A DNA stretch of 54,601 nt, taken from an uncultured Eisenbergiella sp. Its GTDB lineage: Bacteria > Bacillota > Clostridia > Lachnospirales > Lachnospiraceae. The first letter of the stretch is position 1. Every line of letters starts with the position of its first letter. The DNA lies in assembly GCA_947627215.1 (NCBI GenBank), contig CANQVD010000025.1, positions 1 to 54,601 of the forward strand. The letters are read 5' to 3'. Made by a program: the position numbers and the translations under genes. Positions 15,731-46,603 of this stretch are shown in pieces. The notes beneath the pieces were generated by a model. That model was not told where the DNA came from. It saw only the letters and a program-made list of their open reading frames with translations, and ran no database searches.

Positions 15731-15846
15731 AGTTCCTCTCATTCCGCCGCCTGCGCGGCCTGACTTTTCATCCCGTCCGTACGCTCCGGAAGGAAGCCGC
15801 AGGAAACACGCCGTGCCCGGCACTGGCGGCCCCGCTTCTAAAGACC

Positions 15847-15874
15847 ATTATATTTTTGCAGGACGAAATGTCAA
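15847..15874 (-). promoter_or_regulatory. Consensus sigma-A promoter for hisS-aspS inside the GH115 3' end
   Basis: On the minus strand TTGACA (15869-15874) and TATAAT (15847-15852) are both perfect and spaced by 16 bases. They overlap the last codons of GH115 (encoding LTFRPAKI and the TAA stop). Transcription would begin near 15840, about 110 bases before hisS. Confidence 0.85.
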
Positions 15875-18800
15875 GCCGGAGTTTTTTTCTGTGCCCCCGC
15901 GTTCTGCTCTGTCCATGTCCGCACACTCCGGTTTCCCCGCGCCCGTACAGACGCTCTCCGCAGGCCCCAGATAAGCGCTCCGACGCGCGCCGTCCCGGCT
16001 GATCACGATCCGCTCCAGCACCGCTCCGGCCTCCAGCGCTCCGACGGTCAGCTCCCACTGCCCGGCCTCAAAGAAGTCCGAAAAGCCCGTGCTCCTTTCC
16101 TGATCCAGCACGCCGGACGACCATCTCGGATCCCCCGGCTCTCCCGCCCGGAAATCCGCGGGCACCAGGGTGAGAATCCGCTCTTTCTTCCTTCCGCCGC
16201 CCTGTGTGCGTACCGCCAGACGGATCGGTCTGCCGTGCTCCGTCGGATTCGTGGGCGCGGCGATGAGATCCACCCGGTATTCTCCGGGCTTTTCCAGATA
16301 AAAACGCCAGGTCAGCTCCGGTTTTTCCCCGTCTTCCGAAAAAGCAGCGGTGGACGGCGCCACCTTGACCGCGCTTCCGTATTTCCCATATCCCTTCAGG
16401 ATCCGGAAGCCGCCCTTTTCCGTGTCCTTTTTTTCGCAGAAACGGGCCGCGTTCATGGCGATCACGCCGTTTTTCTCCAGAAACGTCCGCGGCAAAAGAT
16501 CCCCGGCGGGCGCCTTTCCCCAGATGTCCGCCGCGGCCAGCGTCTCGCCGTCAGAGATCAGAAGCCGTACTTTCTTCGCTTCTGCCGGAAGCGCCTTCGG
16601 CACGCAGATCAGCCAAATCTTTTCCAGCAGAGACGTCCTGCCCGCCGCGGGCAGCGTCCGGAAAAATTCCAGGGATGTCTCCGCGCCTTCCCGCATGGCG
16701 GTCCCTTCCGCTTTCGTCCCGTTTGCGGCAGTCGCTTTCGCCCCGTTTGCGGCAGCCTCCCTCGCCCCATCCTGCGCGGCGTCGGCCTTTTCCCGGGCGA
16801 TCAGCAGCCAGGGCGGAAGCGGCCCGCCGTCCTCGGACCGGATCTCATAGGAAACGACGCCGGTCCCGGTATTGGCGATCTCCAGACATACCTCTTTGCA
16901 GCCCGCGTACTGAAAATCCGGCACCTCCAGAACGATGGGCGCGCCGTAATTTTTCGTGGCCGTCCGTTCCTCATCCGCCCGGGACACGCTCATCCGCGGA
17001 CGGGCAACGGGCTCCACCCGCATGAGGACCGGATAACGGCAGTCATCCTCGTTCCACTTGGTGAAACCGATATGGCTGGCCAACTGCATCCCGTTCCATC
17101 TGCCGCCTCCAAAAGCGCTCCATTCCTCTGCCAGCTCCCGGTCCCGCCGGATGCAGGCCGCGGACAGCTCCGCGTACGCGTTGGCCACGGTCCTTCCCTG
17201 TGCCGCATAATGCTGATTCTTTCCGGCATACAGATGCATTTTCAGAAGGTTCATACTGGCTACGGCCGGATAATGCACCATGCTGTAATAGGCCCCGGCC
17301 GGCGTTTCCGGCCGGATATCCGCGGCCTTCGGCAACTGTGGCGGAAGGGCCTTCTGCCCGGACAGCGCCAGAAGCGCCCGCAGATTTTCCTCCGACCGCC
17401 TTTCCACATCCTTCGCCAGCGCCAGCATCCGGTCCGTTTCCCCATAATGACAGGGATGGTAAATGCCAGCGTGAAGCGCCTCCGGGCGGCGCAGGGCGTT
17501 GATGTCGATATAATCCGTGAATATGCCGGCGATCCGCTCCCGCAGCGCAGCGTCCGCGGCCGGGAAGCAGCGCTGTGCCCACTGCGCTGTATATTCCCGT
17601 GCGCTGTCCGGATTCCCTGTTCCCCATTTGTCAAAATCCCAGGCCAGCGCCATAAAGTAGGTCAGCGGCACCTCATGGAATTTCACATCTCCCACGTTGA
17701 CGATCCAGACGTTCCGGATGCCGTATTCATAGGCCTGGCCCATCTGCTCCCAGATCCGCGTAAGGGGTGTGGAATCCACCCACTCATAGGAAATGGGCGC
17801 GCCGTGGTAGTCGAGATGGTAATACATCCCGAACCCGCCCTTCCGGTCCCGGATTTCTTCCGTCGGCAGGGTGCGCATCTGTCCGTAATTGTCCTCGCAG
17901 AGCATACAGGTCACGCCCTCCAGACCGTCCCAGTCTTTCAGCCCCGGCGTCTTCTCGTCCCCGTAAAAATAGGCCTCCACTTCCTTATAAAGGGCCAGAA
18001 GCAGCGGCGGCTCGCCGCTCTCCCGCTTCACATGCCGCCGGATCAGTTCCCGCTGTACGGTGATGATGCGCTTCAAAAGCTCCACATTTTCCGTCACCGT
18101 GGCCTCCGGTCCCAGCATACAGGAATCGTACTCGCCCCGCATGCCGATGGTGATCATGTTGTCGTATTTTCCGCTTCTTTTGAGGGCATCCTCCCAATAG
18201 CGGGTCAGCCCCTTTTCATTGGTATAAAAATTCCACGCGTCCCCGTAGGGGCTGTCGGGCCCGCAGACCTTTTTCCATTCCTCGCTGGCCCGCAGACAGG
18301 GCTCGTGATGGGAATAGCCCATGACCACGCCGTAAAGGTCCGCCAGCTCCTCGTTGGCGCTGCCGGGCCCGTCCAGCGGGAACGACGCGCTCCACATCGC
18401 CGGCCAGAGATAATTGCCCTTCATCCGCAGCAGAAACTCGAACACCGTATCGTAGCACGCCGCGTTGAAGCCGCCGAAATGCTCCGTCGCCCAGCTTCCG
18501 AAGCAGGGCCACTCGTCATTGATGAAAAATCCCCGATAACGGACGGAAGGCTCTTTGGAAACCGTCTCGATGTCCGGACCGATCGTGACGGATTCCCGTT
18601 TCTGCGGCGCCGCATCCCCAAAGCAGCACAGCGGCGTGACGCCGATGTATTCGGACAGCGAAAACATCCCGTAGATCGTGCCCCGCTTATCGCTGCCGCA
18701 GATCAAAAGAATCTGTTCCAGCTCCCGGGGCCATTCAAAGGCCGCATCCGCTCCGCCGCACAGACCGGCCGCATCCGCCCCGTGCGGCGGCTCCGCATTC

Positions 18801-19111
18801 CCACCGTCCGCCGCGGCGAACTGCTCTCTGGCCAGCAGCCGGATCTGATACGTCTCCCATCCGGGCCGCAGATCCACGAGCCCCCTTCGGGTCAGCTCGT
18901 CCAGCAGTGCGCTCTTCCCGAGGGTCGCGCACAGGATCACGCGCGCATGCCCTTCCAGCTCGTCCTCCGCAATGACCCGTGCCGCCCGGCCGGTCACCTT
19001 TTCCATATCCTTCGCCACTTTCCCGGCGATCCGCCTGACGCCCTCAAAGGCGGTATGCTCTGCCAGCAGCGGCGGCAGTTCCTGCCGCCGGTTCCATTCC
19101 ATCGTTCTCAT
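15848..19111 (-). CDS. Glycoside hydrolase family 115 xylan alpha-glucuronidase
   Basis: GH115 enzymes remove (4-O-methyl-)glucuronic acid from internal and terminal xylose units of glucuronoxylan. The 1087-aa protein shows the family core: SEYIGVTPLCCFGD near 148, RYRGFFINDEWPCFGSWATE near 190 and MKGNYLWPAMWSASFPLDGPG near 232, then GYSHHEPC, LTRYWEDAL, TIGMRGEYDS and a C-terminal beta domain ending at YLGPAES. About 34 residues after that (15848-15952) look unlike the family and run through the hisS promoter. No signal peptide, so it works on imported oligosaccharides. GAGG precedes the start; a Met at residue 4 is an alternative. Confidence 0.95.
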   Translation of the reverse strand: MRTMEWNRRQELPPLLAEHTAFEGVRRIAGKVAKDMEKVTGRAARVIAEDELEGHARVILCATLGKSALLDELTRRGLVDLRPGWETYQIRLLAREQFAAADGGNAEPPHGADAAGLCGGADAAFEWPRELEQILLICGSDKRGTIYGMFSLSEYIGVTPLCCFGDAAPQKRESVTIGPDIETVSKEPSVRYRGFFINDEWPCFGSWATEHFGGFNAACYDTVFEFLLRMKGNYLWPAMWSASFPLDGPGSANEELADLYGVVMGYSHHEPCLRASEEWKKVCGPDSPYGDAWNFYTNEKGLTRYWEDALKRSGKYDNMITIGMRGEYDSCMLGPEATVTENVELLKRIITVQRELIRRHVKRESGEPPLLLALYKEVEAYFYGDEKTPGLKDWDGLEGVTCMLCEDNYGQMRTLPTEEIRDRKGGFGMYYHLDYHGAPISYEWVDSTPLTRIWEQMGQAYEYGIRNVWIVNVGDVKFHEVPLTYFMALAWDFDKWGTGNPDSAREYTAQWAQRCFPAADAALRERIAGIFTDYIDINALRRPEALHAGIYHPCHYGETDRMLALAKDVERRSEENLRALLALSGQKALPPQLPKAADIRPETPAGAYYSMVHYPAVASMNLLKMHLYAGKNQHYAAQGRTVANAYAELSAACIRRDRELAEEWSAFGGGRWNGMQLASHIGFTKWNEDDCRYPVLMRVEPVARPRMSVSRADEERTATKNYGAPIVLEVPDFQYAGCKEVCLEIANTGTGVVSYEIRSEDGGPLPPWLLIAREKADAAQDGAREAAANGAKATAANGTKAEGTAMREGAETSLEFFRTLPAAGRTSLLEKIWLICVPKALPAEAKKVRLLISDGETLAAADIWGKAPAGDLLPRTFLEKNGVIAMNAARFCEKKDTEKGGFRILKGYGKYGSAVKVAPSTAAFSEDGEKPELTWRFYLEKPGEYRVDLIAAPTNPTEHGRPIRLAVRTQGGGRKKERILTLVPADFRAGEPGDPRWSSGVLDQERSTGFSDFFEAGQWELTVGALEAGAVLERIVISRDGARRSAYLGPAESVCTGAGKPECADMDRAERGGTEKNSGLTFRPAKI

Positions 19112-19137
19112 CCGTTTTTCCTCATTCCTTTTACATA

Positions 19138-19165
19138 CAGCCGCCCGGACCGGTCCGGGCGGCTG
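19138..19165 (-). terminator. Perfect 28-bp palindrome between the SGNH and GH115 genes
   Basis: CAGCCGCCCGGACC is followed directly by its exact reverse complement, starting 3 bases past the SGNH esterase stop and about 27 bases before the GH115 start. As RNA it folds into a very stable hairpin with no T-run after it. It may set the GH115:esterase ratio or be a bidirectional stabiliser rather than a full terminator. Confidence 0.5.
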
Positions 19166-19168
19166 CCA

Positions 19169-20884
19169 TCACTCCACATATCCGAATCCCAGTATGGTGA
19201 AATCCAGTTCCTCGTCCCCCGGGCACATCCGGATCTCCACATGGTGGATCTTCTTTTCCTGCTCCCGAAAACAGATCAGCGGATTGCAGTGCGTCCACCC
19301 GATCTGCCTGGGATCGATCAGAAGCACCTGCTCGCCGTCCGCGAACACCTGCGCTCTGCCGGCCCTGACCGAACCGGAATCCTTATAGACCAGCAGCAGC
19401 GTCCGGCAGGAAATCTCCATCCGGAAGGGCCTCGTTTCGCTTCCGCCCTCATGCTTCCAGTTGTAGGGGAACTGCGGCGTCTGCCCCAGATCCATATCCC
19501 GCTCCACGCCCTGGAGCTCCGCATCCGCTTTGTCAAAATCGCCGCAGTCAATGACCGCGCCCGCGGGATTCTGTTTCCGGTCCAAAAGCCTGACGCCCTC
19601 AAAGGCGCCGCCCAGCGGCGGCGCCGGAAGCGCCGTCCCTTCCGGTCCGACAGCCTGCCCGGCGGATCCCTCCGCGGCCTTTTCAAACAGATCGTTCAGA
19701 CAGTCCGCCATGATCCGATGCCCCACATTGGTCGGATGATACCGGTCATAGAAAAACTGATTTTTGCTGACCACCCTGCCCTCGCCCGGCTTTTGGTAAA
19801 ACTGTTCCTTCACCGCATCCCGAACGCTGACCATGGGAAGCCCGTAAGCCTCTCCCACCGGCGACAGCCGCTCCTGCAGGTTCCAGTCGTCCACGAAAAC
19901 CGCGAACAGAAGGATCACCGCCGGACGGTTGGGCGCGTTCAGGATCTTTCTCACCAGGGAATCATAGCACTCTCCCTTCGTCTCGTCCCCCTCATCGTTC
20001 ACCGCGAATTCCACCACGACTACATCCGGCAGCACTTCGCCGTCCCGGCACACATCCCGTTCATACCGGATCATACCCAGTTCGGAGGGCGTTCCGCCCA
20101 CGCCGGCCTTGCAGTAATGAATATTTTCCTCCGTCCCCCTTCCGGCCGCCCGACAGAAGCCGACAAACGCGCGGTACGCATAACAGCCCGTATGGATCGG
20201 CACGGCCCCCGCGCCCTGGGTGATGGAGCCTCCGAGAAAGGCCACCGTCACATCCTCTCCCCGGCGGGCCTTTTGCAGCGCCGCATAAAGCCGCGCCGTA
20301 TTCCCCGCCTGCACCAGGGATTTTTCGATCATCGCCCGATAAGCGGCGGAAGCAAAATCGACCGCCTCCTCTTCCTGTACCGGGGGCGCTTCAAAGCCGT
20401 CCTGCAAAAAGAACCGGACCCAGACCCTGTACGGCATGCCCGCCTTTTCAAAACCGAAGCGGATCTGCCCCGACTCCTTGTCATCCGAAGACCACTGACA
20501 GTCGCCCAGGACCAGCCGTCTTTCCGCCCCGTCCGCGCGCAGCCCCAGCCGCAGCATCGTGCCGGAGCCGTTGGGATCCGTCTTCCCGTACATCTGAAAC
20601 GCGAAGGAAACCTCCGCCGCCGGATCGTCTCCCTCCGCCGTCACGCCGATGCTGTGTACCAGCCTGCGGAATCCTTCCGTTGTCTTCAAAAGATCCAGCA
20701 TCGTTTCATCGGAAATACCGCCCACGATCCGCGCGCTGCTGATCATCCGTCCGTCATTCTGATACAGGAACGAAATGCCGCCTCCGTCCGGCGCGGGGCC
20801 GCCCGCCACTTCCTTGTTCCGCATGATGTAAAAATAACTCCGCTGTTTTTCCGGGTCCTTTGGAGCCCTCGGTCCTTCTGTCAT
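19169..20884 (-). CDS. SGNH-hydrolase esterase, probable acetyl-xylan esterase
   Basis: A 571-aa three-part protein without signal peptide. The middle (about 212-405) is an SGNH/GDSL hydrolase: nucleophile Ser in FLGGSITQGAG (about S220), block II Gly in GVGGTPSE, block III Asn in EFAVNDEGDE and the Asp/His pair in YDRYHPTNVGHR. The N-terminal part (about 40-165) is beta-rich and may bind carbohydrate; the C-terminal part (about 410-571) is a second beta domain of unknown role. Between a GH5 and a GH115 gene, deacetylation of xylo-oligosaccharides is the likely task (inference). The start overlaps the GH5 stop by 4 bases, with GGAGG inside the GH5 gene. Confidence 0.82.
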   Translation of the reverse strand: MTEGPRAPKDPEKQRSYFYIMRNKEVAGGPAPDGGGISFLYQNDGRMISSARIVGGISDETMLDLLKTTEGFRRLVHSIGVTAEGDDPAAEVSFAFQMYGKTDPNGSGTMLRLGLRADGAERRLVLGDCQWSSDDKESGQIRFGFEKAGMPYRVWVRFFLQDGFEAPPVQEEEAVDFASAAYRAMIEKSLVQAGNTARLYAALQKARRGEDVTVAFLGGSITQGAGAVPIHTGCYAYRAFVGFCRAAGRGTEENIHYCKAGVGGTPSELGMIRYERDVCRDGEVLPDVVVVEFAVNDEGDETKGECYDSLVRKILNAPNRPAVILLFAVFVDDWNLQERLSPVGEAYGLPMVSVRDAVKEQFYQKPGEGRVVSKNQFFYDRYHPTNVGHRIMADCLNDLFEKAAEGSAGQAVGPEGTALPAPPLGGAFEGVRLLDRKQNPAGAVIDCGDFDKADAELQGVERDMDLGQTPQFPYNWKHEGGSETRPFRMEISCRTLLLVYKDSGSVRAGRAQVFADGEQVLLIDPRQIGWTHCNPLICFREQEKKIHHVEIRMCPGDEELDFTILGFGYVE

Positions 20885-22158
20885 CTTTCCTCCGTTCTGG
20901 CCGCGGTCAGTTTATCCGCATTCTCCGCCAGCGCGTCCGCGATCTCCGGGGCGTACCAGGTCAGAGAACGCCGGTCGAAGATCCCGAATTTTTCTCCGTC
21001 CGCATCGTAAATGCCGTTGTCCCACCAGACGCACGGGATACCGCGCTGCCCGGCCATCTCCATATAATCCGCCAGCCACGCCAGCACCTGGTCCGTATTC
21101 TCCCGCGCCGTCCCGTCCGCGTCCCGGTAGGACTTGCGGACCGCGCCGAATTCCGTGATGATCACGGGCACGCCCCTGTCGATGAGATACCGGTCCAGAA
21201 GCTTCATATTAGCGGAAAGCTCTCCCTTCAGCGCCGGCGTCCATTCGCTGACGCTGTCCTGCCCGGGATCAAAGGCGAAGAAATAAGGCGTATACATATG
21301 CACCGCCACGGCGATGTTCTCATCATCCGCCGGGATCTCCAGCTCCCCGAGGGTCTGCGCGGTGACCGAATTCCCGTAAGGGCAGAGGATCAGGCACCGG
21401 TCGGCGTTTCTGCCGCCGCAGGAGCGCACGGTTCGCACAAAGGCGGCGTTCAGCCGGTTGACCGCTTCTCTGCCTTCTTTCGTGCCGCCGCTCCATTCCT
21501 CCGGCGAACCCTTGACCCTGGGCTCGTTCATCCCCTCAAACAACAGTTTTTCCCCGTAATCGGCAAACCGCCCGGCGATCTGCTTCCAGACGGCGCAAAG
21601 CTCTTCTTCCACCTGTTCCAGCCCGTCTTCCTGCGGTTTCAGCCAGTAATCCGGCTCATGGTGGGTATCCAGGATCACATACATGCCCTCGCCGTAAGCA
21701 TAATCCACCACCTGAGCCACCCGCTCCAACCAGTCCCGGTCGATCTCATAATCCGGCGCGCCGCCCACATGCTCGCTCCAGGTGACCGGAAGACGCAGCG
21801 TGCGAAAGCCCTGAAGGCGCACCGCGTCGATCATTTCCTTCGTGGTCTCGGGATTTCCCCAATAGGTCTCATCCGCCGCCGGATCTGGCGCACCGTGGGC
21901 GTCAAAGGTATTGCCCAGATTCCAGCCCACACCCATGTCGGCCAGAAGCCGCGCCGTATTTTCCCTGTTCCGCATTTCGTCCCCGGCCTGCACTTCCTGA
22001 TCCTCTGTCTCCGGGAAGCCCTCTTCCTCCGGCGTCTTCTCCGTCCGCTCCGTTCCCGCCGCCATGCCGTCCGCGCCGCCGGACGGCGTGCAGGAAGTCC
22101 AAAGAATGGCGGCGGTCAGCGCCGCCGCGATAACGGTCAACCTTTTTCTCATCCTCAT
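20881..22158 (-). CDS. Secreted GH5 endoglycanase lipoprotein
   Basis: A lipoprotein signal peptide ends at Cys23 (ILWTSC), followed by a short spacer and a GH5 catalytic domain (about 70-415): VGWNLGNTFDAHG, acid/base Glu in GMNEPR (about E212), VHMYTPYFF and nucleophile Glu in VIITEFGA (about E336). It is exposed on the cell surface and probably cuts xylan, xyloglucan or beta-glucan; GH5 covers many specificities and the subfamily is not certain from sequence. It heads a three-gene operon with the SGNH esterase and GH115, divergent from the AraC regulator. The ATG at 22152 has a better-spaced GAGG than that at 22158. Confidence 0.92.
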   Translation of the reverse strand: MRMRKRLTVIAAALTAAILWTSCTPSGGADGMAAGTERTEKTPEEEGFPETEDQEVQAGDEMRNRENTARLLADMGVGWNLGNTFDAHGAPDPAADETYWGNPETTKEMIDAVRLQGFRTLRLPVTWSEHVGGAPDYEIDRDWLERVAQVVDYAYGEGMYVILDTHHEPDYWLKPQEDGLEQVEEELCAVWKQIAGRFADYGEKLLFEGMNEPRVKGSPEEWSGGTKEGREAVNRLNAAFVRTVRSCGGRNADRCLILCPYGNSVTAQTLGELEIPADDENIAVAVHMYTPYFFAFDPGQDSVSEWTPALKGELSANMKLLDRYLIDRGVPVIITEFGAVRKSYRDADGTARENTDQVLAWLADYMEMAGQRGIPCVWWDNGIYDADGEKFGIFDRRSLTWYAPEIADALAENADKLTAARTEER

Positions 22159-22220
22159 AACCTCTAATTTCTACTTTTATTTGCATCAATTCCTGCCGAA
22201 AATTTGTTAAGAACACCCAA

Positions 22221-22249
22221 TTTACTTTTCATGAAAAAAAAGGTACAAT
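22221..22249 (+). promoter_or_regulatory. Candidate promoter of the AraC-type regulator
   Basis: TTTACT (22221-22226) and TACAAT (22244-22249) are spaced by 17 bases in an A+T-rich strip. The start of transcription would be near 22256, leaving a short leader that still contains GGGAG (22258-22262). The divergent GH5 operon has no clear promoter in the same strip; TTGATG followed by TAGAAA is a poor candidate. Confidence 0.55.
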
Positions 22250-22272
22250 ACAAAAAAGGGAGTGTGAAGCAT

Positions 22273-23202
22273 ATGGCAAAGATAAACGCTGATTTTTACA
22301 GCTCCAATAATGATTACTCCGGCACCCGCAAAATCCAGGCGGACATACAGGAGCTGGTAGAATACCGCGGGAACGCCTCCGTGCGCATCTGGTACAACGA
22401 GCAGACGGAATGCTTTGCCAACCACTGGCACAACGCCGTGGAGATCATCCTCCCAATGGAAAACTGGTATGATGCGACCGTCGGAGAGGAGCATTTTCAT
22501 CTGCAGCCCGGAGATATCCTGTTCATTCCTTCCCGCGCTCTCCATTCTCTCACCGCGCCGGAAAGCGGCATCCGCTTCATCTTTCTGCTGGATCCCGTTC
22601 CGCTGGAATCCATCCGCGGATTTTCCAGAATGGAATCGCTGCTCGCCTCCCCGCTCTATCTGACCCGCAGTCAGAATCCTTCGCTTTATGAGGAAGTGTA
22701 TCATATCCTGCTGCAGATGCGCAACGAATACTTCGGCTCCAACGAATATTCCGACCTGTCCGTCTATTCCCTGTTTCTGAATCTGTATGTGGTCCTCGGG
22801 AATGACCGATCCAACAATCAGGCGCTCTCCTCTTCCGGGCAGATCACCCGTCAGAAGGAATACGCCGATAAATTCAACGGAATCCTCGAATATATCGATT
22901 CCCACTATACGGAAGATCTGTCTTTGGAGGATATGGCCTCTTCAGCGGGTTTTTCCAAATTTCATTTTTCCAGACTCTTCAAACAGTATACCGGCTTTAC
23001 CTTCGCCGCCTACGTCTGCCACCGGAAGGTCCGGGTCGCGGAGGAACTGCTGAGCCAGTCTGACCTGCCTATCACCCAGATCGCGATGCAGTCCGGGTTT
23101 TCCAGTCTTCCCACCTTTAACCGCGTCTTCCGCCAGCAGAAGAACTGCTCGCCCTCCGAATTCCGCACCAAAAACGGAATCATGCATCACATGCATAGCT
23201 GA
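22273..23202 (+). CDS. AraC-family transcriptional regulator with cupin sensor
   Basis: The N-terminal half (about 30-130) is a cupin-like sugar-sensing domain (NHWHNAVEIILPMEN, LQPGDILFIPSRALHSL). The C-terminal about 100 residues hold two helix-turn-helix motifs of the AraC/XylS type (LSLEDMASSAGFSKFHFSRL and ITQIAMQSGFSSLPTFNRVF). The ATG at 22273 has GGGAG ten bases upstream. It is the sole intact plus-strand gene, between the two minus-strand arms of the xylan locus, and is the obvious local regulator, sensing a xylan breakdown product (inference). Its 3' end overlaps the GH43 gene coming the other way by 23 bases. Confidence 0.93.
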   Translation: MAKINADFYSSNNDYSGTRKIQADIQELVEYRGNASVRIWYNEQTECFANHWHNAVEIILPMENWYDATVGEEHFHLQPGDILFIPSRALHSLTAPESGIRFIFLLDPVPLESIRGFSRMESLLASPLYLTRSQNPSLYEEVYHILLQMRNEYFGSNEYSDLSVYSLFLNLYVVLGNDRSNNQALSSSGQITRQKEYADKFNGILEYIDSHYTEDLSLEDMASSAGFSKFHFSRLFKQYTGFTFAAYVCHRKVRVAEELLSQSDLPITQIAMQSGFSSLPTFNRVFRQQKNCSPSEFRTKNGIMHHMHS

Positions 23203-24748: not shown

Positions 24749-24796
24749 CTCTTCTCCCACTCTTTCTTACGCGTATTCCGCAGGCGCTGTTTTTGC

Positions 24797-34645: not shown

Positions 34646-34701
34646 GGTCACTCCCATCCTTTTCGTCCCGGCAGATATCTTTTCTCATGCCGCTGCGCCT
34701 G

Positions 34702-35358
34702 CTATAGTCGGAACATGATTTCCTTGGCCAGGGATATGAAATACGCTACGCCCTGGGAAATCATGCTGAAGAACAGCAGCAGGATAAATATGATCACCAG
34801 CATGGCAAACAGACTGGCCACAATAAAAAGCAGGTTCTTTGCCATCGAGAACTCATGAATCTGTCCCATGGCTGCGATGAACAGCATCGCGGCCCACACC
34901 AGGGACAGGGCGCTTATGACCGAATAGAACTCCGCCTCATCCACTGTCACGAAATTGCTGAAGAACATCAGCGGGAACTGGATCAGCGGGTACGGCGTCA
35001 GCGCGTAGCAGCTCGCCATATATACCTGACCCAGCCTCGCCTTGCCGTCGAACAGGGTGGTCAGTCCCCAGTTGCCGATCACGAAGATGGCGAGCGGGAA
35101 CGCTACGCTGGCGATATACAGGAAGATATTGATGCCCTCCCAGTAGACCGTTATGAAGATGAAGCTGGTATAACGGAGTTTCAGCACCCTGATCAGCAGG
35201 GTGAGAAACAGGATGGTGTTCGCCGCCGCGTAGGTGCCCCGTTTTTCATGGGTGAGGTCCCAGAAGCCGTCCAGCGGATGGGTGATGCAGTACAGCGCGA
35301 ACTTCAGGCTCTTAAGATACCGTTGCATGTCGATTTTATTGTTCAGTGCAGCAATCAT
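34702..35358 (-). CDS. YIP1-family multi-span membrane protein
   Basis: A 218-aa integral membrane protein with about five hydrophobic segments and a short cytoplasmic N-terminus containing ITHPLDGFWDLTHEKRGT, a YIP1-type opening. Yip1 proteins in eukaryotes act in membrane trafficking; the bacterial ones have no settled role. The start at 35358 follows GGGAGG. It sits 16 bases after the NHL gene and before DUF5696, forming a three-gene block set inside ABC transporter genes. Confidence 0.82.
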   Translation of the reverse strand: MIAALNNKIDMQRYLKSLKFALYCITHPLDGFWDLTHEKRGTYAAANTILFLTLLIRVLKLRYTSFIFITVYWEGINIFLYIASVAFPLAIFVIGNWGLTTLFDGKARLGQVYMASCYALTPYPLIQFPLMFFSNFVTVDEAEFYSVISALSLVWAAMLFIAAMGQIHEFSMAKNLLFIVASLFAMLVIIFILLLFFSMISQGVAYFISLAKEIMFRL

Positions 35359-35374
35359 ACCGGCCTCCCTTTCC

Positions 35375-36877: not shown

Positions 36878-36895
36878 AGGCCACCTCATTTCCCG

Positions 36896-37804: not shown

Positions 37805-37805
37805 C

Positions 37806-38744: not shown

Positions 38745-38755
38745 GCTCTCCTCCC

Positions 38756-41704
38756 TCATTCTTCCAACGGCAGGCCGAACTCGATCCGCTTCTTGGTGAG
38801 CTCGTCATTGATAGTTACCGCGTAATCTATGATCGTCTCGCGGGAATCAACCTTTTCGTTGATCACCTTCCGGATGGCGTTGGTGATATGGCGGCCCGTA
38901 AAGTATCCGCCCGGCACCTCCCGGATTCCCACGGTCTGATCCCACTGGTCGCTGAGCACCGCGATATCGTCCGCGCTCCAGGAAAGCTGTTCGAAAGCGT
39001 CCTTGTTCGCCGTCGCGTACCGGGCCGAGGAGCCCAGCAGAGCCTCGATCTCACGGCCGAAGCGCACCTGCGTGTCGGGCTGCGCCCACCACTTCATGAA
39101 CTCCCAGGAGGCGTTCCGCAGAGATTCTTTTTCCGTGGCGATCATCATGGTGGCGTTGCCGGTGATGAAGTCGGAACGGTCAATATAAGTGCTGCCGTCC
39201 GGATTCGTGTATTCCGTGCCGGGGATCAGGGTGAAATCCCACAGGCCGCGGATCTCGGGCGCCGACACCATCAGCGTATTGTAGGTCGAGTACGCCGATA
39301 TGCCGATGGGCATTTCGCCGGAACGGAACCGGCTGACGAAATCATAAATGGTCGGAAGGCCGTAATCGTTGAAGTACCTGACGTAATCCTTGAAGGCCCT
39401 CACGCCCGCCTCGGAATCCACCGTGGTCTTGCCGCCCATCTCGGTGTACATGTCGCCGCCGTACTGATACAGGAGCGTAAAGTACAGGGACAGATCCGGC
39501 GAATTGGAGGCGATCGACGTCGTGGCCGCCGCCGAGCTGCTGCTGCCCGCCGCCGTCGGGATGCCGATGGAGAGGTTGTTGCCCTGGATCGTCGGAAGCA
39601 GCTCGATCAGCTCCTGCCAGGTCTGGGGCACCTCCACGCCCAGCTCCTCCAGCACGTCCTTGCGGTAGAACATCACGTTGAAGGTCTGGGTCTCGGGGAT
39701 GGCGTAAATGTGTCCGTCCAGACCGTACTGCTCATAGGAGCTCTTCGTATAATGAGAGAACACATCCTCCCAGCCCGGGAACTGGGTCAGATCCTCCACC
39801 GCGTTCCGCAGGGCCAGGTTGACCGGCTGGTCCGCGCCCACGGAAAGCACCACGTTGGGGCCCCTGCCCGCCATCACCGCGTTAAGCAGGGCGCTGGGAT
39901 CCACGACCTCCACGTTGACCTTCACGCCGGTTTCGGGGGTAAAGGTATCGTCCACCATGGACTTTAAGATCGTGCCCTGGTCGCGGCCGGTCAGGATCCA
40001 GACCTTGACCACGTCCTCACCGCTCTTTTCGTCATAGACATCTCCTACCGCGTTGTAATCCACCACGAAGGAGGCCGCGAAGGATTTCATCTCGTGCCAG
40101 ACAGAGCTGAAAATGTTCGATTTATCGCTGGCCGGTTTCACGTCGGTGCTGCACACCTCGATGTAATCGATATCCAGTTTCGTTTCGCTTAAGTTCAGGG
40201 CCGCCGTGCCCAGAGAGGTGATATTGTCCTTGAAGGTGGTGAACTCCAGCGTGATCTTCTGAGGCTTCTCGCAGAAGCGCTCCAACTGCTGGGCCACCGT
40301 CTGGGCGGAGGCGATGTTGTCCGCCTTCTGTCCGCTGTAGGCCACCATGTCGTCCACGATCTTGAACAGCCGCTTGGACTCCAGATCCATGGCCTCCATC
40401 ACTTCGGGATAATTTCTTTCAATGAAATAGTCCCTGTACTGGTCTGGGTTCGCGCCGGTATACACCAGGACCCTTCTGTAGATCTGGTTCAGGCGGAAGG
40501 TGGAATCCTCCAGCTCCTCCAGGATGGCGCCCACGCCGCCCAGCGTCGCCTCCAGGCGGATGGTATGCGTTCCGGCCGTCAGATAGAACTGATACGGATT
40601 GCCCGCGCCGTCTCCCAGCACCATGCAGTTCCAGTCATTGCTGTATTCAAAAGCGATCTCCTTCATCTCCGCAAAGGGGACCTGGCCGTCTATGTATACG
40701 GTTCTGCTGCTCACCACGCCGCGGGAGTAGTTCTGACGGCCTTTGACCATGATGTTGTAAAAGCCGTCCTGCGGAACCTCAAAATCCCACTCGATCCACT
40801 GGCCCGAGCTCCTCCAGGCGTCGCCGCCCACATAGTTGAGCACCGTGGTGGTCACGCTGTTGGGCTGGGTCGTGGGAGAAGATCTGTCATATTTCGCATA
40901 GAGAGAGGACTCGGAACGGAAGGTGGAATCCTCGCCCTGAATGATCTGGGAATATCCCGTCACACTGCTCCCGGAGGGCTGCGCCGCCAGATACTCCTCA
41001 TAGGACGGCGTGTCCGTCACCGCGCGCAGCGTCAGTCTGCGCAGCGCCAGGGGCTCGTTCTCCCCCACCAGGGTCAGCTCATTGGTCCCCTTTTCCAGAT
41101 AAAAGAGATAGGGCTCCGTCTCATAACCCATGTCGTCCCGGAAATAGGCCGACTGCCACTGGAAGGACTCTACCTGGACAGGCCGGATCTCATTGCCCTG
41201 GTTATCGACCTTGACCTCGCCGCCGTCGGTCCAGATCCTGCTGAAGGTGATATTGTTGGCCCCGTCAAAGGGAAGCTCGCCGTTGAGATATACGGAACGC
41301 TCTGCCGGCACGCCTCTGGATTCCGGCGCCAGATACTCCATATAGAGATTGTAAAAACCGGTCTCGGGCACCTCTACCTGCCAGGTGACGGTGGAGCCGG
41401 ACTCCGTGAGCAGGACCTTCGCCTCGCCCTCATAGTTCTCACGGGTCTCCACGCCGGCGGCATCGGAATACTCGAACAGATCGATATCCACATCCTGCCC
41501 GGGATACGCCGCGTCCTCATGGGCGAGAAGATATCCGGTATAGGTTCCCTCTCTCTCCATGCCCGCCACATCCCTGGTGAGATCCGCTCCCGCGTACTTG
41601 TCACTGAAATTCTCTACAGTATCCCGCAGGATGAAAAAGGCGAAAAGGGCTGCCGCCGCCACGATGATAACACCTACGATGATTTTTTTAGCAGAATTTT
41701 TCAT
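38756..41704 (-). CDS. Giant membrane-anchored binding protein with two carbohydrate-binding-like domains
   Basis: At 982 aa this is about twice the normal size. An uncleaved-looking membrane segment (about 8-27) replaces the usual lipobox. Two similar beta domains follow (about 90-230 and 285-395), each with a WxxEVPxxGFYN motif and an SVYLNGELPF/TVYIDGQVPF motif, like CBM6 or malectin modules. A helical linker (about 420-480) leads to a family 1 solute-binding domain (about 565-970; VLSVGADQPVN, FNVMFYRKDVLEELGVEVP, EFMKWWAQP). It probably captures long or branched xylan fragments. GGAGGG precedes the start at 41704. It heads the 13-gene run. Confidence 0.9.
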   Translation of the reverse strand: MKNSAKKIIVGVIIVAAAALFAFFILRDTVENFSDKYAGADLTRDVAGMEREGTYTGYLLAHEDAAYPGQDVDIDLFEYSDAAGVETRENYEGEAKVLLTESGSTVTWQVEVPETGFYNLYMEYLAPESRGVPAERSVYLNGELPFDGANNITFSRIWTDGGEVKVDNQGNEIRPVQVESFQWQSAYFRDDMGYETEPYLFYLEKGTNELTLVGENEPLALRRLTLRAVTDTPSYEEYLAAQPSGSSVTGYSQIIQGEDSTFRSESSLYAKYDRSSPTTQPNSVTTTVLNYVGGDAWRSSGQWIEWDFEVPQDGFYNIMVKGRQNYSRGVVSSRTVYIDGQVPFAEMKEIAFEYSNDWNCMVLGDGAGNPYQFYLTAGTHTIRLEATLGGVGAILEELEDSTFRLNQIYRRVLVYTGANPDQYRDYFIERNYPEVMEAMDLESKRLFKIVDDMVAYSGQKADNIASAQTVAQQLERFCEKPQKITLEFTTFKDNITSLGTAALNLSETKLDIDYIEVCSTDVKPASDKSNIFSSVWHEMKSFAASFVVDYNAVGDVYDEKSGEDVVKVWILTGRDQGTILKSMVDDTFTPETGVKVNVEVVDPSALLNAVMAGRGPNVVLSVGADQPVNLALRNAVEDLTQFPGWEDVFSHYTKSSYEQYGLDGHIYAIPETQTFNVMFYRKDVLEELGVEVPQTWQELIELLPTIQGNNLSIGIPTAAGSSSSAAATTSIASNSPDLSLYFTLLYQYGGDMYTEMGGKTTVDSEAGVRAFKDYVRYFNDYGLPTIYDFVSRFRSGEMPIGISAYSTYNTLMVSAPEIRGLWDFTLIPGTEYTNPDGSTYIDRSDFITGNATMMIATEKESLRNASWEFMKWWAQPDTQVRFGREIEALLGSSARYATANKDAFEQLSWSADDIAVLSDQWDQTVGIREVPGGYFTGRHITNAIRKVINEKVDSRETIIDYAVTINDELTKKRIEFGLPLEE

Positions 41705-41887
41705 AAAACCCTCCAAACACCAACTGTAGTTGCCTGACCCATATACAAAATGCCAGCGCATTTTATCTCGTATAATTGAATCATACATAACTTTTGTCGG
41801 CTTTTTCTACATAATCCTTGCCATTGGCTTATCATTTTTTGCTTTTTTCGAGCCCGCCGCGGTCGTTTTCCGCACACTTTTCCTCGC

Positions 41888-41933
41888 AAAAAATAAAAAA
41901 GGCATGACAGCCTGCACAAACTGTCATGCCTTT
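41888..41933 (-). terminator. Intrinsic terminator of the GH43-carboxylesterase operon
   Basis: A perfect 13-bp stem (AAAGGCATGACAG with CTGTCATGCCTTT, 41898-41910 and 41921-41933) with a 10-base loop is followed on the minus strand by TTTTATTTTTTG. This is the clearest intrinsic terminator in the window. The plus-strand side has only TTTCTC after it. Confidence 0.85.
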
Positions 41934-41976
41934 CTCATCTCTGATTCGTCGTTTTTTCCGTCTGCGCTCCGCCGCT

Positions 41977-42073: not shown

Positions 42074-43585
42074 TCACTTCAGCTCCCCGATGATCTTTTC
42101 CCGGAGCATCCGGCCGAACGGAGAAATCCGCTCGGTCTCCGGCCTGGCGCCCTCCGCCGTGAAGCGCATTTCGACGGGCGTTTCTTCATCAAAAGGCTTC
42201 CATTCCGGCATCGGCGTCCCGTCCGCGTCGCAGCCGTTGGGATCTCCGGTCTTCACGAAGTTCACAAGATAGTTCGCCATCTGGCGCGCCAGGTCATAGT
42301 GCCGGCCGACAAAGGGCCGCCAGCACTTCGCCAGCGTCTCGAAAAAGAACCAGAGATCGACGGAATGGAACGTCCCCGGATCGTCCCAGCCGGGAATATC
42401 CGGCTCGAAGCGGTAATAATAGCCGTTCATCCCGTTCCCGGCCTTCCTGCGCGCGGCGAAAAGTGCCTTGACGGACTGCTCGATCCCTGAGGTGCGGGCG
42501 GAAAAACCGCTTTCGTCAAACCGCGCTTCCTCCAGCGCCAGGAACGCGTCCGCCCGGTCTCCGAAGATCTGTCTGACCTTTTCGGCATATTCTTCGGGCG
42601 ACTTCGCCGCAATCCCGTTCGGGAACTCATCCGCGGTATTGCCCGCCATCACGGGAACGTTGACATATTTTCCTTCCGCAAACAGCTTAACGGCGTCTCC
42701 CACGGTGAACCGGCCGTCCAGGACGCCGAACATTCTGCGGCCGAACGCGTTGTACTTCGCCAGAACGGTCTTCGCATCGATCCGCCTCGCCTCTTCGATG
42801 GACCGGCAGCCGAGAAATTCGAGAAAGGCCTCGCCGTTCTTCTCGGCTTTCTCCATCGGGATGGGCGTTCCGAAACCGTCAGCCTCGTAAGGATTCCGAA
42901 TGATACCGCTCATGACGAACGCGCGCTGAAACAGCCCGACGTTCTGCGGGCTGGCCATCTGGCTCATGACGCTGCCGCCGCCCGCCGACTGTCCGCCGAT
43001 GGTGATGCTGTGCGGATCGCCGCCGAAGGCCGCAATATTGCGCGCCACCCACCGGACGCCCGCCTGCTGGTCCAGGAAGCCGAAGTTCGCGGGCGCGTCG
43101 GGCTGGTCGCGGGTGAGATCGGGATGCGCCAGAAAACCGAAGACGTTCAGGCGGTAATTGACCGTCACGACGACAATCCCGCGGCGGGCCAGCCGTTCGC
43201 CGTCAAACTCCATTTCGGCGGGATAGCCCCACTGGAATCCGCCCCCGAAGAACCATACGAATACCGGCAGCTTCTCCTCCGCCGACCTCGCCGGGGTCCA
43301 GACATTGAGATACAGGCAGTCCTCATCCATGGCGATCCCGGGATCCACATGCCACTCCCGGCAGTAGATGTCCGTCCCCAGTCCCGGCGTATCCTGCACG
43401 GAGATCGGCGCGAACCGGAAGCAGTCCCGCACGCCCTCCCAGTTCTCGGCGGGCTGGGGCGCGCGCCACCGGTTCCTGCCCACCGGCGGGGCCGCAAAGG
43501 GAATCCCTTTAAAAGCCGTGATCCTCGGGTCTGCGGCCTCTATGCCGCGCACGGTTCCGTTTTCTGTCTGCACGATTCTCAACAT
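42074..43585 (-). CDS. Carboxylesterase type B
   Basis: An alpha/beta hydrolase of 503 aa. Marks are FKGIPFAAPPVGRNRW near 25, EDCLYLNVWTP near 85, the nucleophile Ser in TIGGQSAGGGSV (near 188) and a late His in GTFHSVDLWFFF. No signal peptide is present, so it acts on small esters or acylated oligosaccharides in the cytoplasm. Following a GH43 gene in a two-gene operon, removal of acetyl or feruloyl groups from xylo-oligosaccharides is plausible but not shown. The ATG at 43585 follows GGAGGG; upstream Met codons lack a site. Confidence 0.92.
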   Translation of the reverse strand: MLRIVQTENGTVRGIEAADPRITAFKGIPFAAPPVGRNRWRAPQPAENWEGVRDCFRFAPISVQDTPGLGTDIYCREWHVDPGIAMDEDCLYLNVWTPARSAEEKLPVFVWFFGGGFQWGYPAEMEFDGERLARRGIVVVTVNYRLNVFGFLAHPDLTRDQPDAPANFGFLDQQAGVRWVARNIAAFGGDPHSITIGGQSAGGGSVMSQMASPQNVGLFQRAFVMSGIIRNPYEADGFGTPIPMEKAEKNGEAFLEFLGCRSIEEARRIDAKTVLAKYNAFGRRMFGVLDGRFTVGDAVKLFAEGKYVNVPVMAGNTADEFPNGIAAKSPEEYAEKVRQIFGDRADAFLALEEARFDESGFSARTSGIEQSVKALFAARRKAGNGMNGYYYRFEPDIPGWDDPGTFHSVDLWFFFETLAKCWRPFVGRHYDLARQMANYLVNFVKTGDPNGCDADGTPMPEWKPFDEETPVEMRFTAEGARPETERISPFGRMLREKIIGELK

Positions 43586-43609
43586 GATGCTCCCTCCTGT
43601 CACCGTATT

Positions 43610-44998
43610 TTATAATAAGGTAAACGAACCGAAATGCGCCCCGCTGCCCCGGAACGTGAAGTACAGGGCGTGTACGCCGTCCGGGATGGCGATGGGCTGT
43701 TCGGACCGGAACATATGCCAGATGTTCCAGCTCTCCACCGGGATCTCGCCCAGCACCGGGCCGTCCCACGCCGTCCTGACCTCGACCCTGCCGTGCATAT
43801 AGCCGCGCGCGGTGATCGCCACATCCCGGACGCCCTTACAGTCAAAATATTTGAAGCCGACGGTGACGCCGTCGCAGATCCCGGCCACATAGCCGGTCTC
43901 CCGGTCGCCATCGCGGCCGTCCTGGACGATCTTCGCGTTGCCGAAGCCGTCTCCGTTTCTGTTGAAGAGATTGCAGGCCAGATATGCGGGATACTCCCCC
44001 TTTCCGGCCAGCGGCCCGCCGTTCAGCCCGCAGGAGGTCATCTCGGCCTGCGGAATCCTGCCGTCGGGAAGCACCTCGATCCTTTCGGCACAGCCCTGCC
44101 TGGAAAACCAGGTCCCGTTGGTCTGACGGTGATAAAAAATATACCATTCGCCGTTTATTTCCACGATGCTGCCGTGATTGTTGCCGATATTGCCAACGTT
44201 CATCTGCGCGGGTTTGTAGGACGAGATGCCGATATCGCCGTTGGAAACGAGGACGCCGCCGTACCGAAAGCCCTCCCGCGGAGACTTGGATACAGCGTAG
44301 CAGAGCTCATGCATGACCTGTGAGGAATAGATGAAATAATAGGTATCCCCGATCTTCCGGATAGACGGCGCCTCGAAGAAAGCGTGTCCCTCGAAGCCGG
44401 TGCCCTGCGCGTACATGCAGCCCGGCGCGATGATCACGGGAGCCTCCGCGACCGTCAGCATGTCCTCCCCCAGAACGGTGGCCTGCGCGCCGGTCCGGGA
44501 GCGGTCTCCCTGCCCGCAGAATCCGGTATAGAGATATGTCCTGCCACCCTCGGTGAGAACGCCGGGGTCGAACTGCGGCTCATCCCCCTCCCGTTCGCCC
44601 AGGAGCGTGCCGTCGGGATAATGGACATAGCCCAGGAATTCGTACCTCCCGGCGGGCGTATCGCATACCGCCACCGATACTACGGATACCTTGTCCAGGA
44701 CATAATAAAGATAATATCTGCCGTCAGGCCCCACCGTCACGTCGGGCGCATAGAGGCACATCCTGCCGTCGGGATTCAGGGGATCCGACGTCTTCGGATA
44801 GATGACGCCCTCATAGCGCCAGTTTCCCAGATCGTCCACCGGCGCGGACCAGCACACGTAGTCTCCCATGCAGAAGACGTAGCCGTTGTAAAAATCGTGG
44901 GAGCCGTAAACGTAGACCCGGTCCCCAAACACATAGGGTTCTCCGTCCGGAATGTATTCCCAGGACGGCAAATACGGATTAAAAGCCTGTTTTTTCAT
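43610..44998 (-). CDS. Glycoside hydrolase family 43 with C-terminal CBM6-like domain
   Basis: A GH43 propeller (about 1-320) opening with PYLPSWEYIPDGEPYVFGDR, then LYAPDVTVGPDGRYYLYY, QFDPGVLTEGG and the probable general acid Glu in FFEAPSIRKIGDTYYF (near 205). The last about 120 residues are a CBM6-like beta-sandwich ending VHALYFTFRGSGAHFGSF. No signal peptide. It likely removes arabinose or xylose side groups inside the cell. It is the first gene of a two-gene operon with a carboxylesterase and a well-defined promoter. Confidence 0.92.
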   Translation of the reverse strand: MKKQAFNPYLPSWEYIPDGEPYVFGDRVYVYGSHDFYNGYVFCMGDYVCWSAPVDDLGNWRYEGVIYPKTSDPLNPDGRMCLYAPDVTVGPDGRYYLYYVLDKVSVVSVAVCDTPAGRYEFLGYVHYPDGTLLGEREGDEPQFDPGVLTEGGRTYLYTGFCGQGDRSRTGAQATVLGEDMLTVAEAPVIIAPGCMYAQGTGFEGHAFFEAPSIRKIGDTYYFIYSSQVMHELCYAVSKSPREGFRYGGVLVSNGDIGISSYKPAQMNVGNIGNNHGSIVEINGEWYIFYHRQTNGTWFSRQGCAERIEVLPDGRIPQAEMTSCGLNGGPLAGKGEYPAYLACNLFNRNGDGFGNAKIVQDGRDGDRETGYVAGICDGVTVGFKYFDCKGVRDVAITARGYMHGRVEVRTAWDGPVLGEIPVESWNIWHMFRSEQPIAIPDGVHALYFTFRGSGAHFGSFTLL

Positions 44999-45290: not shown

Positions 45291-46068
45291 ATGAAACGAA
45301 TCGCTTTACAGAAACTGATCGCCCGAAAACAGGCGGCCGCTGGACGGACCGATCCACTCGCTGGCAATGGAACAGGTATATAAATATCTGCTCGTAGGCG
45401 GTATGCCGGAAGCCGTGGAAACCTATATTGAAGGTGGGAATCTTCTGGAGGCCAGGGAGATCCTGAAGGCTCTGTACGACAATTATCTCGCTGATATGGA
45501 GCTGTATCAGGCAAGTCAGGAGTCCATACTGCGTTCACGGGTCCTGTTCCAGAACATTTACAGGGAGCTGAACAAAGAATCCAGGAACTTCTCGCCCGGA
45601 CTTATCGAGGAAAAGAGCAAAACAAGAGATTTCGCGACATCGATCCAGTGGCTCACAATGGCATATGTTCTCAACCAGTCCTTCCAACTGAAAGAACATG
45701 TCACAATGCCGCTTCGTTTGTCTCCGTCGAAAGAGAAAATGTCCTGTCCGGCATCTTCTTTGAAAATTTTGTCGCCAATGAGCTGACTGCCAAAGGACAT
45801 AAGCTGTTTTTATTGGCGCGGCAAGGCATCTGCAGAACTCGAATTTGTGATCGAATCGAATAACCGGCTGTACCCGATCGATGTCAAAAAAAGCAGAGGC
45901 ACGCTCCGTTCCCTCGAAAAGTTCTCAAACCATAATCCGTTCGAATACGCCGTTAAAGTTTCCAAAAATAATTACGGCTATGATCCCGGACAGAGGCTGC
46001 TCACGATACCGTTTTACTTCATTCCGTTTGCAGCCAAAGATCTTGCCGACGGGACAATGACGGTATGA
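45291..46068 (+). pseudogene. AAA ATPase with DUF4143, internally deleted and frameshifted
   Basis: Remnant of a roughly 400-residue ATP-binding protein. The first codons (MKRIALQKLIARKQ, from 45291, with AGGAAG upstream) match the family N-terminus. They then join, in another frame, to GPIHSLAMEQVYKYLLVGGM, which is the DUF4143 region; Walker A and the rest of the ATPase core are missing. A second shift near 45720 leads to IFFENFVANELTAKGHKLF, and a third piece resumes near 45810 with YWRGKASAELEFVIESNNR and LYPIDVKKS. The stop is at 46066-46068. These proteins often occur near toxin-antitoxin genes and mobile DNA. Here it is dead. Confidence 0.8.
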
Positions 46069-46169
46069 CCGGCTCCGCCGCACATTCCGCGGCTCAGCCG
46101 CCGAACAGCGCGCGCTTCGGATTGAATTCCTCGCCTTTCGTTATCGTCCTTTCCCATACGGCGGCTTCT

Positions 46170-46238
46170 TTATTTTCCGAACAGGTCACTGTGCGTCCCG
46201 GTGCGGGCCAGCGTCAGCACCAGCACATCATCCTTCAT
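46170..46238 (-). pseudogene. Remnant of a YafQ/RelE-type toxin
   Basis: A 22-codon frame, MKDDVLVLTLARTGTHSDLF plus two residues, starts in a 4-base overlap with the antitoxin stop, exactly where the toxin of a RelB/DinJ pair should start. TLARTGTHSDLF is the usual C-terminal end of YafQ/RelE-family toxins. The middle of the protein (about 65-75 residues with the catalytic site) is absent, so it is inactive. Confidence 0.75.
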
Positions 46239-46510
46239 CGTTTCAGCTCCCGGAGTGCTTCTTCCACATCGGAATAGTACTTTACGCCTGGATCACGCGC
46301 GATCCGCTCTGCCTCTAACATGGCGGCAATCGTTTCTTTGTTGGGCTGATCCAGCCGCACCTCAAACGGGAAGCCGCCTGCCCGGAGGGACTGGCGCAGA
46401 AAGACGTTGATCGCGGTGGTAAGGTTGACCCCCAATTCATTGTAAAGACTCTCACACTGTTTCTTGATGTCGCTGTCCATGCGGACGCTGAAATTTGTTG
46501 TGCCTGCCAT
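46235..46510 (-). CDS. RelB/DinJ-family antitoxin
   Basis: A complete 91-aa antitoxin. The N-terminal ribbon-helix-helix part reads TTNFSVRMDSDIKKQCESLY, followed by LGVNLTTAINVFLRQSLRAGGFPFEV, a RelB/DinJ hallmark, and a charged C-terminal helix that would wrap the toxin. It normally represses its own operon. The toxin gene after it is deleted, so this is an orphan antitoxin that may still bind DNA. GAGGGGG lies eight bases before the ATG. Confidence 0.9.
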   Translation of the reverse strand: MAGTTNFSVRMDSDIKKQCESLYNELGVNLTTAINVFLRQSLRAGGFPFEVRLDQPNKETIAAMLEAERIARDPGVKYYSDVEEALRELKR

Positions 46511-46542
46511 GAGACTGCCCCCTCTTTATCGACTGCACATAT

Positions 46543-46571
46543 AGTATATGCCATCTGCATTGCAAAATCAA
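46543..46571 (-). promoter_or_regulatory. Promoter and likely operator of the antitoxin gene
   Basis: TTGATT (46566-46571) and TATACT (46543-46548) on the minus strand are 17 bases apart. The -10 lies in a near-palindrome ATATACTATAT, a plausible site for the ribbon-helix-helix antitoxin to repress itself. Confidence 0.6.
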
Positions 46572-46603
46572 CTCATAAGACAGGAATTTCAAAAATAAAA
46601 AGC

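What the first reader, a model, noticed from the sequence alone, without database searches (positions are those of the whole stretch)
15731..46603. A 31-kb xylan island appears to split a conserved housekeeping gene order
In many Clostridia apt, rel, MBL hydrolase, hemZ, hisS and aspS are adjacent in that order (established gene order). Here the first four end at 46604 and hisS starts at 15730, all on the same strand, and everything between is xylan use, transport, a regulator and a toxin/ATPase scar. That suggests insertion of a catabolic island between hemZ and hisS, with the scar region marking the hemZ-side edge.
Basis: partly seen in the sequence, partly recalled or inferred. Interest (0 to 1): 0.75.

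Follow-up and report, generated by a model that had tools for sequence, protein, structure and literature searches.

The report
Xylan genes filling an insertion hotspot
In a gut Lachnospiraceae genome about 30 kb of xylan-digesting genes sit between two housekeeping genes that are direct neighbours in several close relatives, at a spot where other relatives carry different inserts, one of them a phage-defence system.

Summary
In detail: apt-rel-MBL-hemZ and hisS-aspS flank about 30 kb of xylan genes plus a scar. In 6 of 12 congeners hemZ and hisS lie under 150 bp apart, one of them (G007) inside the window's own clade, so insertion on the stem of the window species and its closest relatives is the best reading. 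G003 has the same genes and both junctions, which argues strongly against misassembly. Two corrections. (1) The joint is a hotspot rather than a conserved order broken once: congeners hold BREX, an ATPase, a BNR protein with EamA, or AraC/ABC genes there, a chicken Eisenbergiella holds GH95-GH2-GH43-GH31 before hisS, and only 10 of 58 informative named loci are closed. (2) The island is not one foreign import: composition is native, and its 21-kb main part (GH5 to SBP2) stands near metA in G008 and G009, while its two end pairs stand at other sites. Relocation plus accretion is most likely; transfer from a congener is not excluded. The scar is the decayed remnant of a separate element: in G002, BREX with RelB/YafQ lies between 24-bp copies of hemZ's 3' end. 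hisS keeps its own promoter.

The parts
12670..15730 (-). hisS-aspS, the downstream flank
   Evidence: TIGR00442 / NF001750 above cut-off; ATG at 15730
15847..15874 (-). hisS promoter TTGACA-16-TATAAT, overlapping the GH115 stop codon; the hisS-side junction lies just upstream
   Evidence: 12 of 12 match, the only such one of 22 promoter-like sites; same in G003; 8 of 10 relatives scanned have TTGAAA-17-TA(G/A)AAT
15848..20884 (-). GH115 and GDSL esterase: hisS-side accretion; the pair stands at another site in G008
   Evidence: Pfam; G008:C3, 55% and 61%
20881..22158 (-). GH5; relatives (50-62%) lie in the metA-site loci of G008 and G009
   Evidence: Pfam
22204..23202 (+). AraC-family regulator; relatives (73-74%) in the metA-site loci of G008 and G009
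   Evidence: HTH_AraC 1.7e-25
23180..26245 (-). GH43 and GH10; present in reversed order in the metA-site loci
   Evidence: Pfam
26265..41788 (-). 15.5-kb transport core: two paralogous unknowns, SBP1-permeases, DUF5696, Yip1, NHL, permeases-SBP2
   Evidence: Pfam; 86-98% aa to G008 and G009
41893..41938 (-). terminator-like hairpin between carboxylesterase and SBP2
   Evidence: 20-pair stem with T tail
42074..44998 (-). carboxylesterase and GH43: hemZ-side accretion; the pair stands at another site in G008 and G009
45325..46065 (+). decayed AAA_14/DUF4143 ATPase (C-terminal part only, frame broken); intact relative in G002
   Evidence: 79% to residues 180-453 of the G002 protein
46094..46117 (-). 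displaced copy of the 24-bp hemZ 3' end
46173..46238 (-). remnant of a YafQ toxin gene (last 22 residues)
   Evidence: longer, open copies in G003 and G002
46235..46510 (-). RelB-family antitoxin
   Evidence: PF04221 2.3e-10
46604..48286 (-). hemZ, the upstream flank; inserts begin at its stop codon
   Evidence: TIGR03994 606 bits
48231..52004 (-). MBL hydrolase, rel, apt

Best explanation
The hemZ-hisS joint is an insertion hotspot in this genus. In the closed state hemZ's last codons run into the hisS promoter; in the open state DNA stands directly behind hemZ's stop codon and in front of the hisS promoter, so both genes stay whole and hisS can be transcribed on its own (shown by comparison; transcription inferred). 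On the stem of G000/G003 (and probably G002) a xylan locus settled there. Its 21-kb main part most likely left the metA site, where G008 and G009 still have it, and was joined by GDSL-GH115 and carboxylesterase-GH43 pairs that stand at other sites in those genomes (relocation and accretion inferred). Separately an element with RelB/YafQ, and BREX in G002, entered behind hemZ between copies of hemZ's 24-bp 3' end; in the window it has decayed. [quoted passage not shown]
For: Joint under 150 bp in 6 of 12 congeners, incl. G007, nested with 99-100% support. Same island and junctions in G003. Main part near metA in G008 and G009. A GH2-like gene that stands at the far end of that locus in G009 is left beside metA without it in G000 and G003 (60-61%), and among 13 genomes a match this close is found only at those places. 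Carboxylesterase-GH43 pair at G008:C12 and G009:C6; GDSL-GH115 at G008:C3. Other inserts in G002, G006, G008, G009. 24-mer: 6 sites in 4 of 14 genomes, all here. hisS promoter kept. Native composition.
Against: G007 lacks the core, so presence in the clade's ancestor needs a loss. G008 lacks the GH2-like metA neighbour above 35%. At four-fold sites the core of G000 is as close to G008/G009 (70-72%) as those are to each other (69%), while seven housekeeping genes are not (64-65 against 70), which favours transfer between lineages; a second sample with bootstrap was inconclusive. The end pairs are 55-74% identical to their G008/G009 relatives and similarly close to those of other genera (G016, G018: 64-65%), so they may be imports. 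A GH43 69% identical to the window's stands before hisS in L083, another Eisenbergiella, so part of the cargo may be older at this joint. In the wider family the joint is mostly open.
Confidence: 0.64

Rival explanations
1. One import: the assembled xylan island arrived in one step by transfer from another Lachnospiraceae and landed at hemZ-hisS.
For: The core of G000 is about equidistant from G008 and G009 at four-fold sites; DUF5696 was not found in 9 of 12 congeners, two of them (G002, G004) incomplete.
Against: Native G+C and codon use; the parts lie at three separate sites in G008; the GH2-like gene left at metA in G000/G003; among 250 family genomes the best DUF5696 outside the window's own genome was 54% (congeners were not in that sample).
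Confidence: 0.22
2. hemZ and hisS were apart first in this genus and the closed state is derived.
For: 48 of 58 informative named loci are not within 300 bp, and GH genes stand before hisS in L083 and L087 too.
Against: rel-MBL-hemZ-hisS-aspS is closed in six congeners and in G015, G034, G049, G033 of other genera; the closed hemZ tails share a promoter-overlapping layout.
Confidence: 0.07
3. Assembly chimera in the metagenome bin.
For: The window is a contig of a 108-contig genome.
Against: G003, another genome (95% identity over six proteins), has the hisS-GH115 and the hemZ-RelB-GH43-carboxylesterase junctions, each on one contig.
Confidence: 0.02
4. The hemZ 3' end is a true attachment site of an integrase-driven element family that also brought the xylan genes.
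For: 24-bp direct repeats bracket BREX+TA in G002 and TA in G003.
Against: No integrase found: the G002 insert's genes are accounted for by defence, TA and ATPase families except one 572-aa protein without a hit; the xylan genes lie outside the repeat pair.
Confidence: 0.12

Closest known systems
Gene-turnover hotspots between core genes (Oliveira et al. 2017, PMC5635113; passages seen)
   Same: A few core-gene joints collect changing accessory genes; [quoted passage not shown]
   Different: Here species of one genus are compared, inserts begin at hemZ's stop codon, and one occupant has a resident relative elsewhere in sister genomes.
Genomic islands integrated at the 3' end of a gene (recalled)
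   Same: The gene's 3' end is repeated on the far side of the insert and the gene stays whole.
   Different: No integrase seen; the repeat pair frames the TA/BREX part, not the xylan genes.
Gram-positive polysaccharide utilisation loci for xylan (recalled; PMC2914790 on Butyrivibrio seen as a listing and start of abstract only)
   Same: GH10, GH43, GH115, esterases, an AraC regulator and ABC transporters together.
   Different: Built around a NHL-Yip1-DUF5696-permease-permease unit that keeps its order in 11 of 11 family loci read.
BREX type 4 (composition BrxP-BrxC-PglZ-BrxL recalled)
   Same: G002 has all four by PADLOC models.
   Different: Not in the window; seen only in the relative G002.

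Membership tests
Insertion hotspot between core genes | closed (empty) state exists in relatives | tested here: met
   6 of 12 congeners under 150 bp
Insertion hotspot between core genes | different inserts in different relatives | tested here: met
   G000/G003, G002, G006, G008 and G009 differ; in named loci some kinds recur (three histidine kinases, two LacI/GGDEF, two LRR, two chemotaxis receptors among 20 proteins of 14 loci), so not every named case need be independent
Insertion hotspot between core genes | more changeable than neighbouring joints | tested here: met
   closed in 10 of 58 against 56 of 72, 25 of 29 and 19 of 24; the last two count only loci with hemZ near hisS; no genome-wide test
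Integrative element at a gene 3' end | direct repeat of the gene's 3' end at the far side | tested here: met
   for the TA/BREX part only
Integrative element at a gene 3' end | integrase or transposase | tested here: not met
   none among 32 window ORFs; in G002 one 572-aa protein is unassigned
Horizontally acquired genomic island | deviating G+C or codon use | tested here: not met
   segments 0.57-0.61 against 0.599 in 101 kb of the genome; codon bias within the 5-95% range of 51 reference ORFs except the spurious x227; the 1.6-kb scar is 0.50
Xylan utilisation locus | GH10/GH43/GH115 with transporter and regulator | tested here: met
   substrate names recalled, activity not testable here

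The most novel reading that the evidence does not exclude
hemZ's 3' end is a specific landing site shared by defence and plant-fibre cargo. All six open congeners end hemZ six residues after its IERK motif (G000 with the variant IERKC), and the 24-mer at that end is 23 of 24 identical between G000's displaced copy and G008 although hemZ as a whole is 72% identical in bases there, as expected if incoming elements bring their own hemZ end. An unrecognised or in-trans recombinase would then pass BREX and glycoside-hydrolase cargo through one site without harming haem or tRNA-synthetase genes.
Probability: 0.17. Interest if true: 0.6.

Novelty: new member of a known kind. Interest (0 to 1): 0.4.

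Why it matters
It suggests how a gut Firmicute regroups scattered fibre-digestion genes at one site, and that one housekeeping joint serves phage defence in one close relative and fibre use in others. It offers a marker site for comparing accessory genes in uncultured Lachnospiraceae and a test of whether hotspots without integrases move by homologous recombination or by site-specific events.

Tried and rejected
Rejected: import from afar (native composition). Rejected: x227 as a gene (amino acids less conserved than four-fold sites; antisense to AraC). Rejected: the xylan genes lying inside the hemZ repeat pair. Inconclusive: the four-fold test of transfer against relocation: (11 core, 7 housekeeping genes) leaned to transfer; (7 of the 11 core genes and 7 others, after dropping genes without reciprocal best triples, with under 30 sites or under 50% identity) had overlapping intervals. 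L138 has GDSL-GH115 relatives near hisS, but downstream of it, not in the gap. Literature: searches returned no paper; some searches were seen as listings with starts of abstracts; of PMC5635113 passages were seen.
Full report
Observation. The window holds apt-rel-MBL-hemZ (46604-52004) and hisS-aspS (12670-15730) on the - strand, separated by GH115, a GDSL esterase, GH5, GH43, GH10, two unknown paralogues, two ABC sugar transporters, DUF5696, Yip1, NHL, a carboxylesterase and a second GH43, an AraC regulator on the + strand, and a scar of RelB, truncated YafQ and a broken AAA_14/DUF4143 ATPase.

Is it an insertion? The genome is a Lachnospiraceae bin; the nearest named hisS records are uncultured Eisenbergiella, Acetatifactor and unnamed Lachnospiraceae. 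Among its 12 congeners hemZ and hisS lie under 150 bp apart in six (G001, G005, G007, G010, G011, G012), 1.6 kb apart in G008 and 3.1 kb in G009; they are on different contigs in G003 and G006, and hisS was not found in G002 and G004 (68% and 58% complete). Of the 47 other family genomes, 28 have a hisS match of at least 62% identity: there the gap is under 150 bp in 12, 0.5-2 kb in 6 and over 2 kb in 4; 5 have the two genes on different contigs and 1 lacks hemZ. Nine with a hisS match of 53% or less and ten without one at the threshold were left out, as were order-level genomes (counted by me). The order rel-MBL-hemZ-hisS-aspS is closed in 10 of the 22 loci read, many of the rest being parts of split loci. 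A tree of six proteins gives ((G000,G003,G002),(G007,(G008,G009))) with 99-100% support for these nodes, the order within the first three being unsettled (62%; G002 by hemZ only). G007 is closed and nested there, so insertion on the G000/G003/G002 stem is the simplest history.

Not an assembly error. G003 has the same genes at 79-100% protein identity; one of its contigs runs from hisS to SBP2, another from the carboxylesterase through GH43, YafQ and RelB to hemZ and rel, and the two contigs share 249 identical bases at the ends that should meet. In half-kb bins identity to G003 is 93-99% in 26 of 27 bins from 26501 to 40000, 83-95% over the hisS-side enzymes, and 88-89% over 40001-42500, so parts of the island evolve faster or have recombined. 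G002 has GH43 at the end of its contig, followed by 169 bases identical to G003; the rest of the island was not found in that incomplete genome.

The joint is a hotspot. In the best 80 of at least 592 named hisS loci, 30 have hemZ upstream (10 within 300 bp, 5 at 0.3-2 kb, 15 beyond), 28 have at least 9 kb of flank without hemZ and 22 too short a flank; so 10 of 58 informative loci are closed. In the same loci hisS-aspS is closed in 56 of 72 (15 have no aspS within 9 kb), MBL-hemZ in 25 of 29 and rel-MBL in 19 of 24. Occupants differ: BREX in G002 (BrxP, BrxC, PglZ, BrxL and a DndA/SspA-like desulfurase), an AAA_14 ATPase in G008, a BNR-repeat protein and an EamA transporter in G009, two AraC regulators with permeases and a likely binding protein directly behind hemZ in G006. 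In the named set 20 of 49 gap proteins were scanned: arabinofuranosidase with GH31 in L087, histidine kinases, chemotaxis receptors, LacI/GGDEF proteins, LRR proteins and others; some kinds recur, so not all need be independent. L083, an uncultured chicken Eisenbergiella, has GH95-GH2-GH43-unknown-GH31-hisS-aspS on one strand, its contig ending before hemZ; its GH43 is 69% identical to the window's hemZ-side GH43 and its GH31 44% to that of L087. Plant-fibre genes have thus come to this joint more than once, or are older there than the tree of this genus suggests.

Where it breaks. In seven closed genomes (the six congeners and G015) hemZ's last codons run into the hisS promoter and hemZ goes on 7-17 residues after the (I/T)xRK motif; in the six open ones (G000, G002, G003, G006, G008, G009) it stops six residues after it (read). 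At most four of these six are independent, and two closed genomes are only one residue longer. The hisS promoter stays with hisS: TTGAAA-17-TA(G/A)AAT is the best match in 8 of 10 relatives scanned (the pattern missed G005, whose sequence shows it; G006 has another best match). The window has TTGACA-16-TATAAT at 15874-15847, overlapping the GH115 stop. Transcription was not tested.

The scar. The 24-bp hemZ 3' end occurs with up to 3 mismatches at six places in 4 of 14 genomes, all here: two in G002 around BREX and RelB/YafQ, two in G003 around RelB/YafQ, one displaced exact copy in G000 (46094-46117; its own hemZ end has 8 mismatches), one at hemZ in G008. In 100 kb of the window's genome the best other match has 7 mismatches. 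Window and G002 align up to hemZ's stop codon and again from just before RelB, with 13.7 kb, holding BREX, extra in G002. The window keeps RelB, 22 residues of YafQ and the C-terminal part of the ATPase; G003 keeps RelB and a full-length YafQ and has no ATPase match there. Open copies thus exist in relatives. In G003 the displaced hemZ end abuts the leader of the xylan GH43 directly, so the TA/BREX element is separate from the xylan genes.

Where the xylan genes came from. The transport core (x301 to SBP2) stands downstream of metA in G008:C25 and G009:C4 at 86-98% protein identity, with one gene between in G008 and two (GH35, GH2) in G009; the order is the same except for a GH5 between SBP1 and x348 in G008. 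GH43 (66%), GH10 (77-80%), AraC (73-74%) and GH5 (50-62%) follow on its other side or within it, GH43 and GH10 in swapped order. So the resident counterpart covers 20881-41788 of the window. DUF5696 was not found in 9 of 12 congeners. Carboxylesterase-GH43 is a pair at a second site in G008 and G009 (66-74%); GDSL-GH115 at a third in G008 (61%, 55%), while G009 has only a distant GH115. At the metA site of G000 and G003 the locus is missing, but a GH2-like gene that ends it in G009 remains (60-61%), found this close in no other place of 13 genomes. This favours departure from metA. Transfer from a congener remains open. G+C and codon use are native.

How it works, stepwise. Shown: empty joint, breakpoint at hemZ's stop, kept promoter sequence, alternative inserts, repeat-framed TA/BREX element, resident counterpart elsewhere. 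Inferred: that congener DNA recombined at the flanking core genes, as proposed for hotspots without mobile genes (PMC5635113, passages), and that grouping xylan genes was favoured. The link to xylan rests on family names (GH10, GH43, GH115), recalled knowledge.

Novelty. A new member of a known kind: a hotspot without a recognised integrase. Three searches of the held library on hotspots or hemZ/hisS insertions returned no paper; a wider one found the general hotspot study.

Noticed in passing
26265-28346: Two adjacent paralogues (39% identical) without a Pfam or NCBIfam hit above cut-off, with invariant cysteines, a CPRR motif and a faint U32 peptidase signal; found in the cores of G003, G008 and G009 too. 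Perhaps a U32-like pair in a xylan locus.
   Followed up: partly
30049-36889: NHL-Yip1-DUF5696-permease-permease keeps its order in 11 of 11 family loci read; no paper in the held library names DUF5696.
   Followed up: partly
L006:2860-8999 and L059:3-7106 (G002): A BREX system with BrxP, BrxC, PglZ, BrxL and a DndA/SspA-like desulfurase directly behind hemZ; its first protein (572 aa) has no Pfam or PADLOC hit.
   Followed up: partly
L083:35-8318: GH95-GH2-GH43-unknown-GH31 directly before hisS in an uncultured chicken Eisenbergiella, a second fibre island at this joint.
   Followed up: partly
L006:2540-2621 and L023:7229-7314: An 80-bp sequence behind hemZ in G002 recurs (86%) between carboxylesterase and SBP2 in G003; possibly a small mobile repeat.
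   Followed up: no
15848-26245: hisS-side enzymes are 79-93% identical between G000 and G003 while the transport core is 95-100%; faster evolution or recombination.
   Followed up: partly
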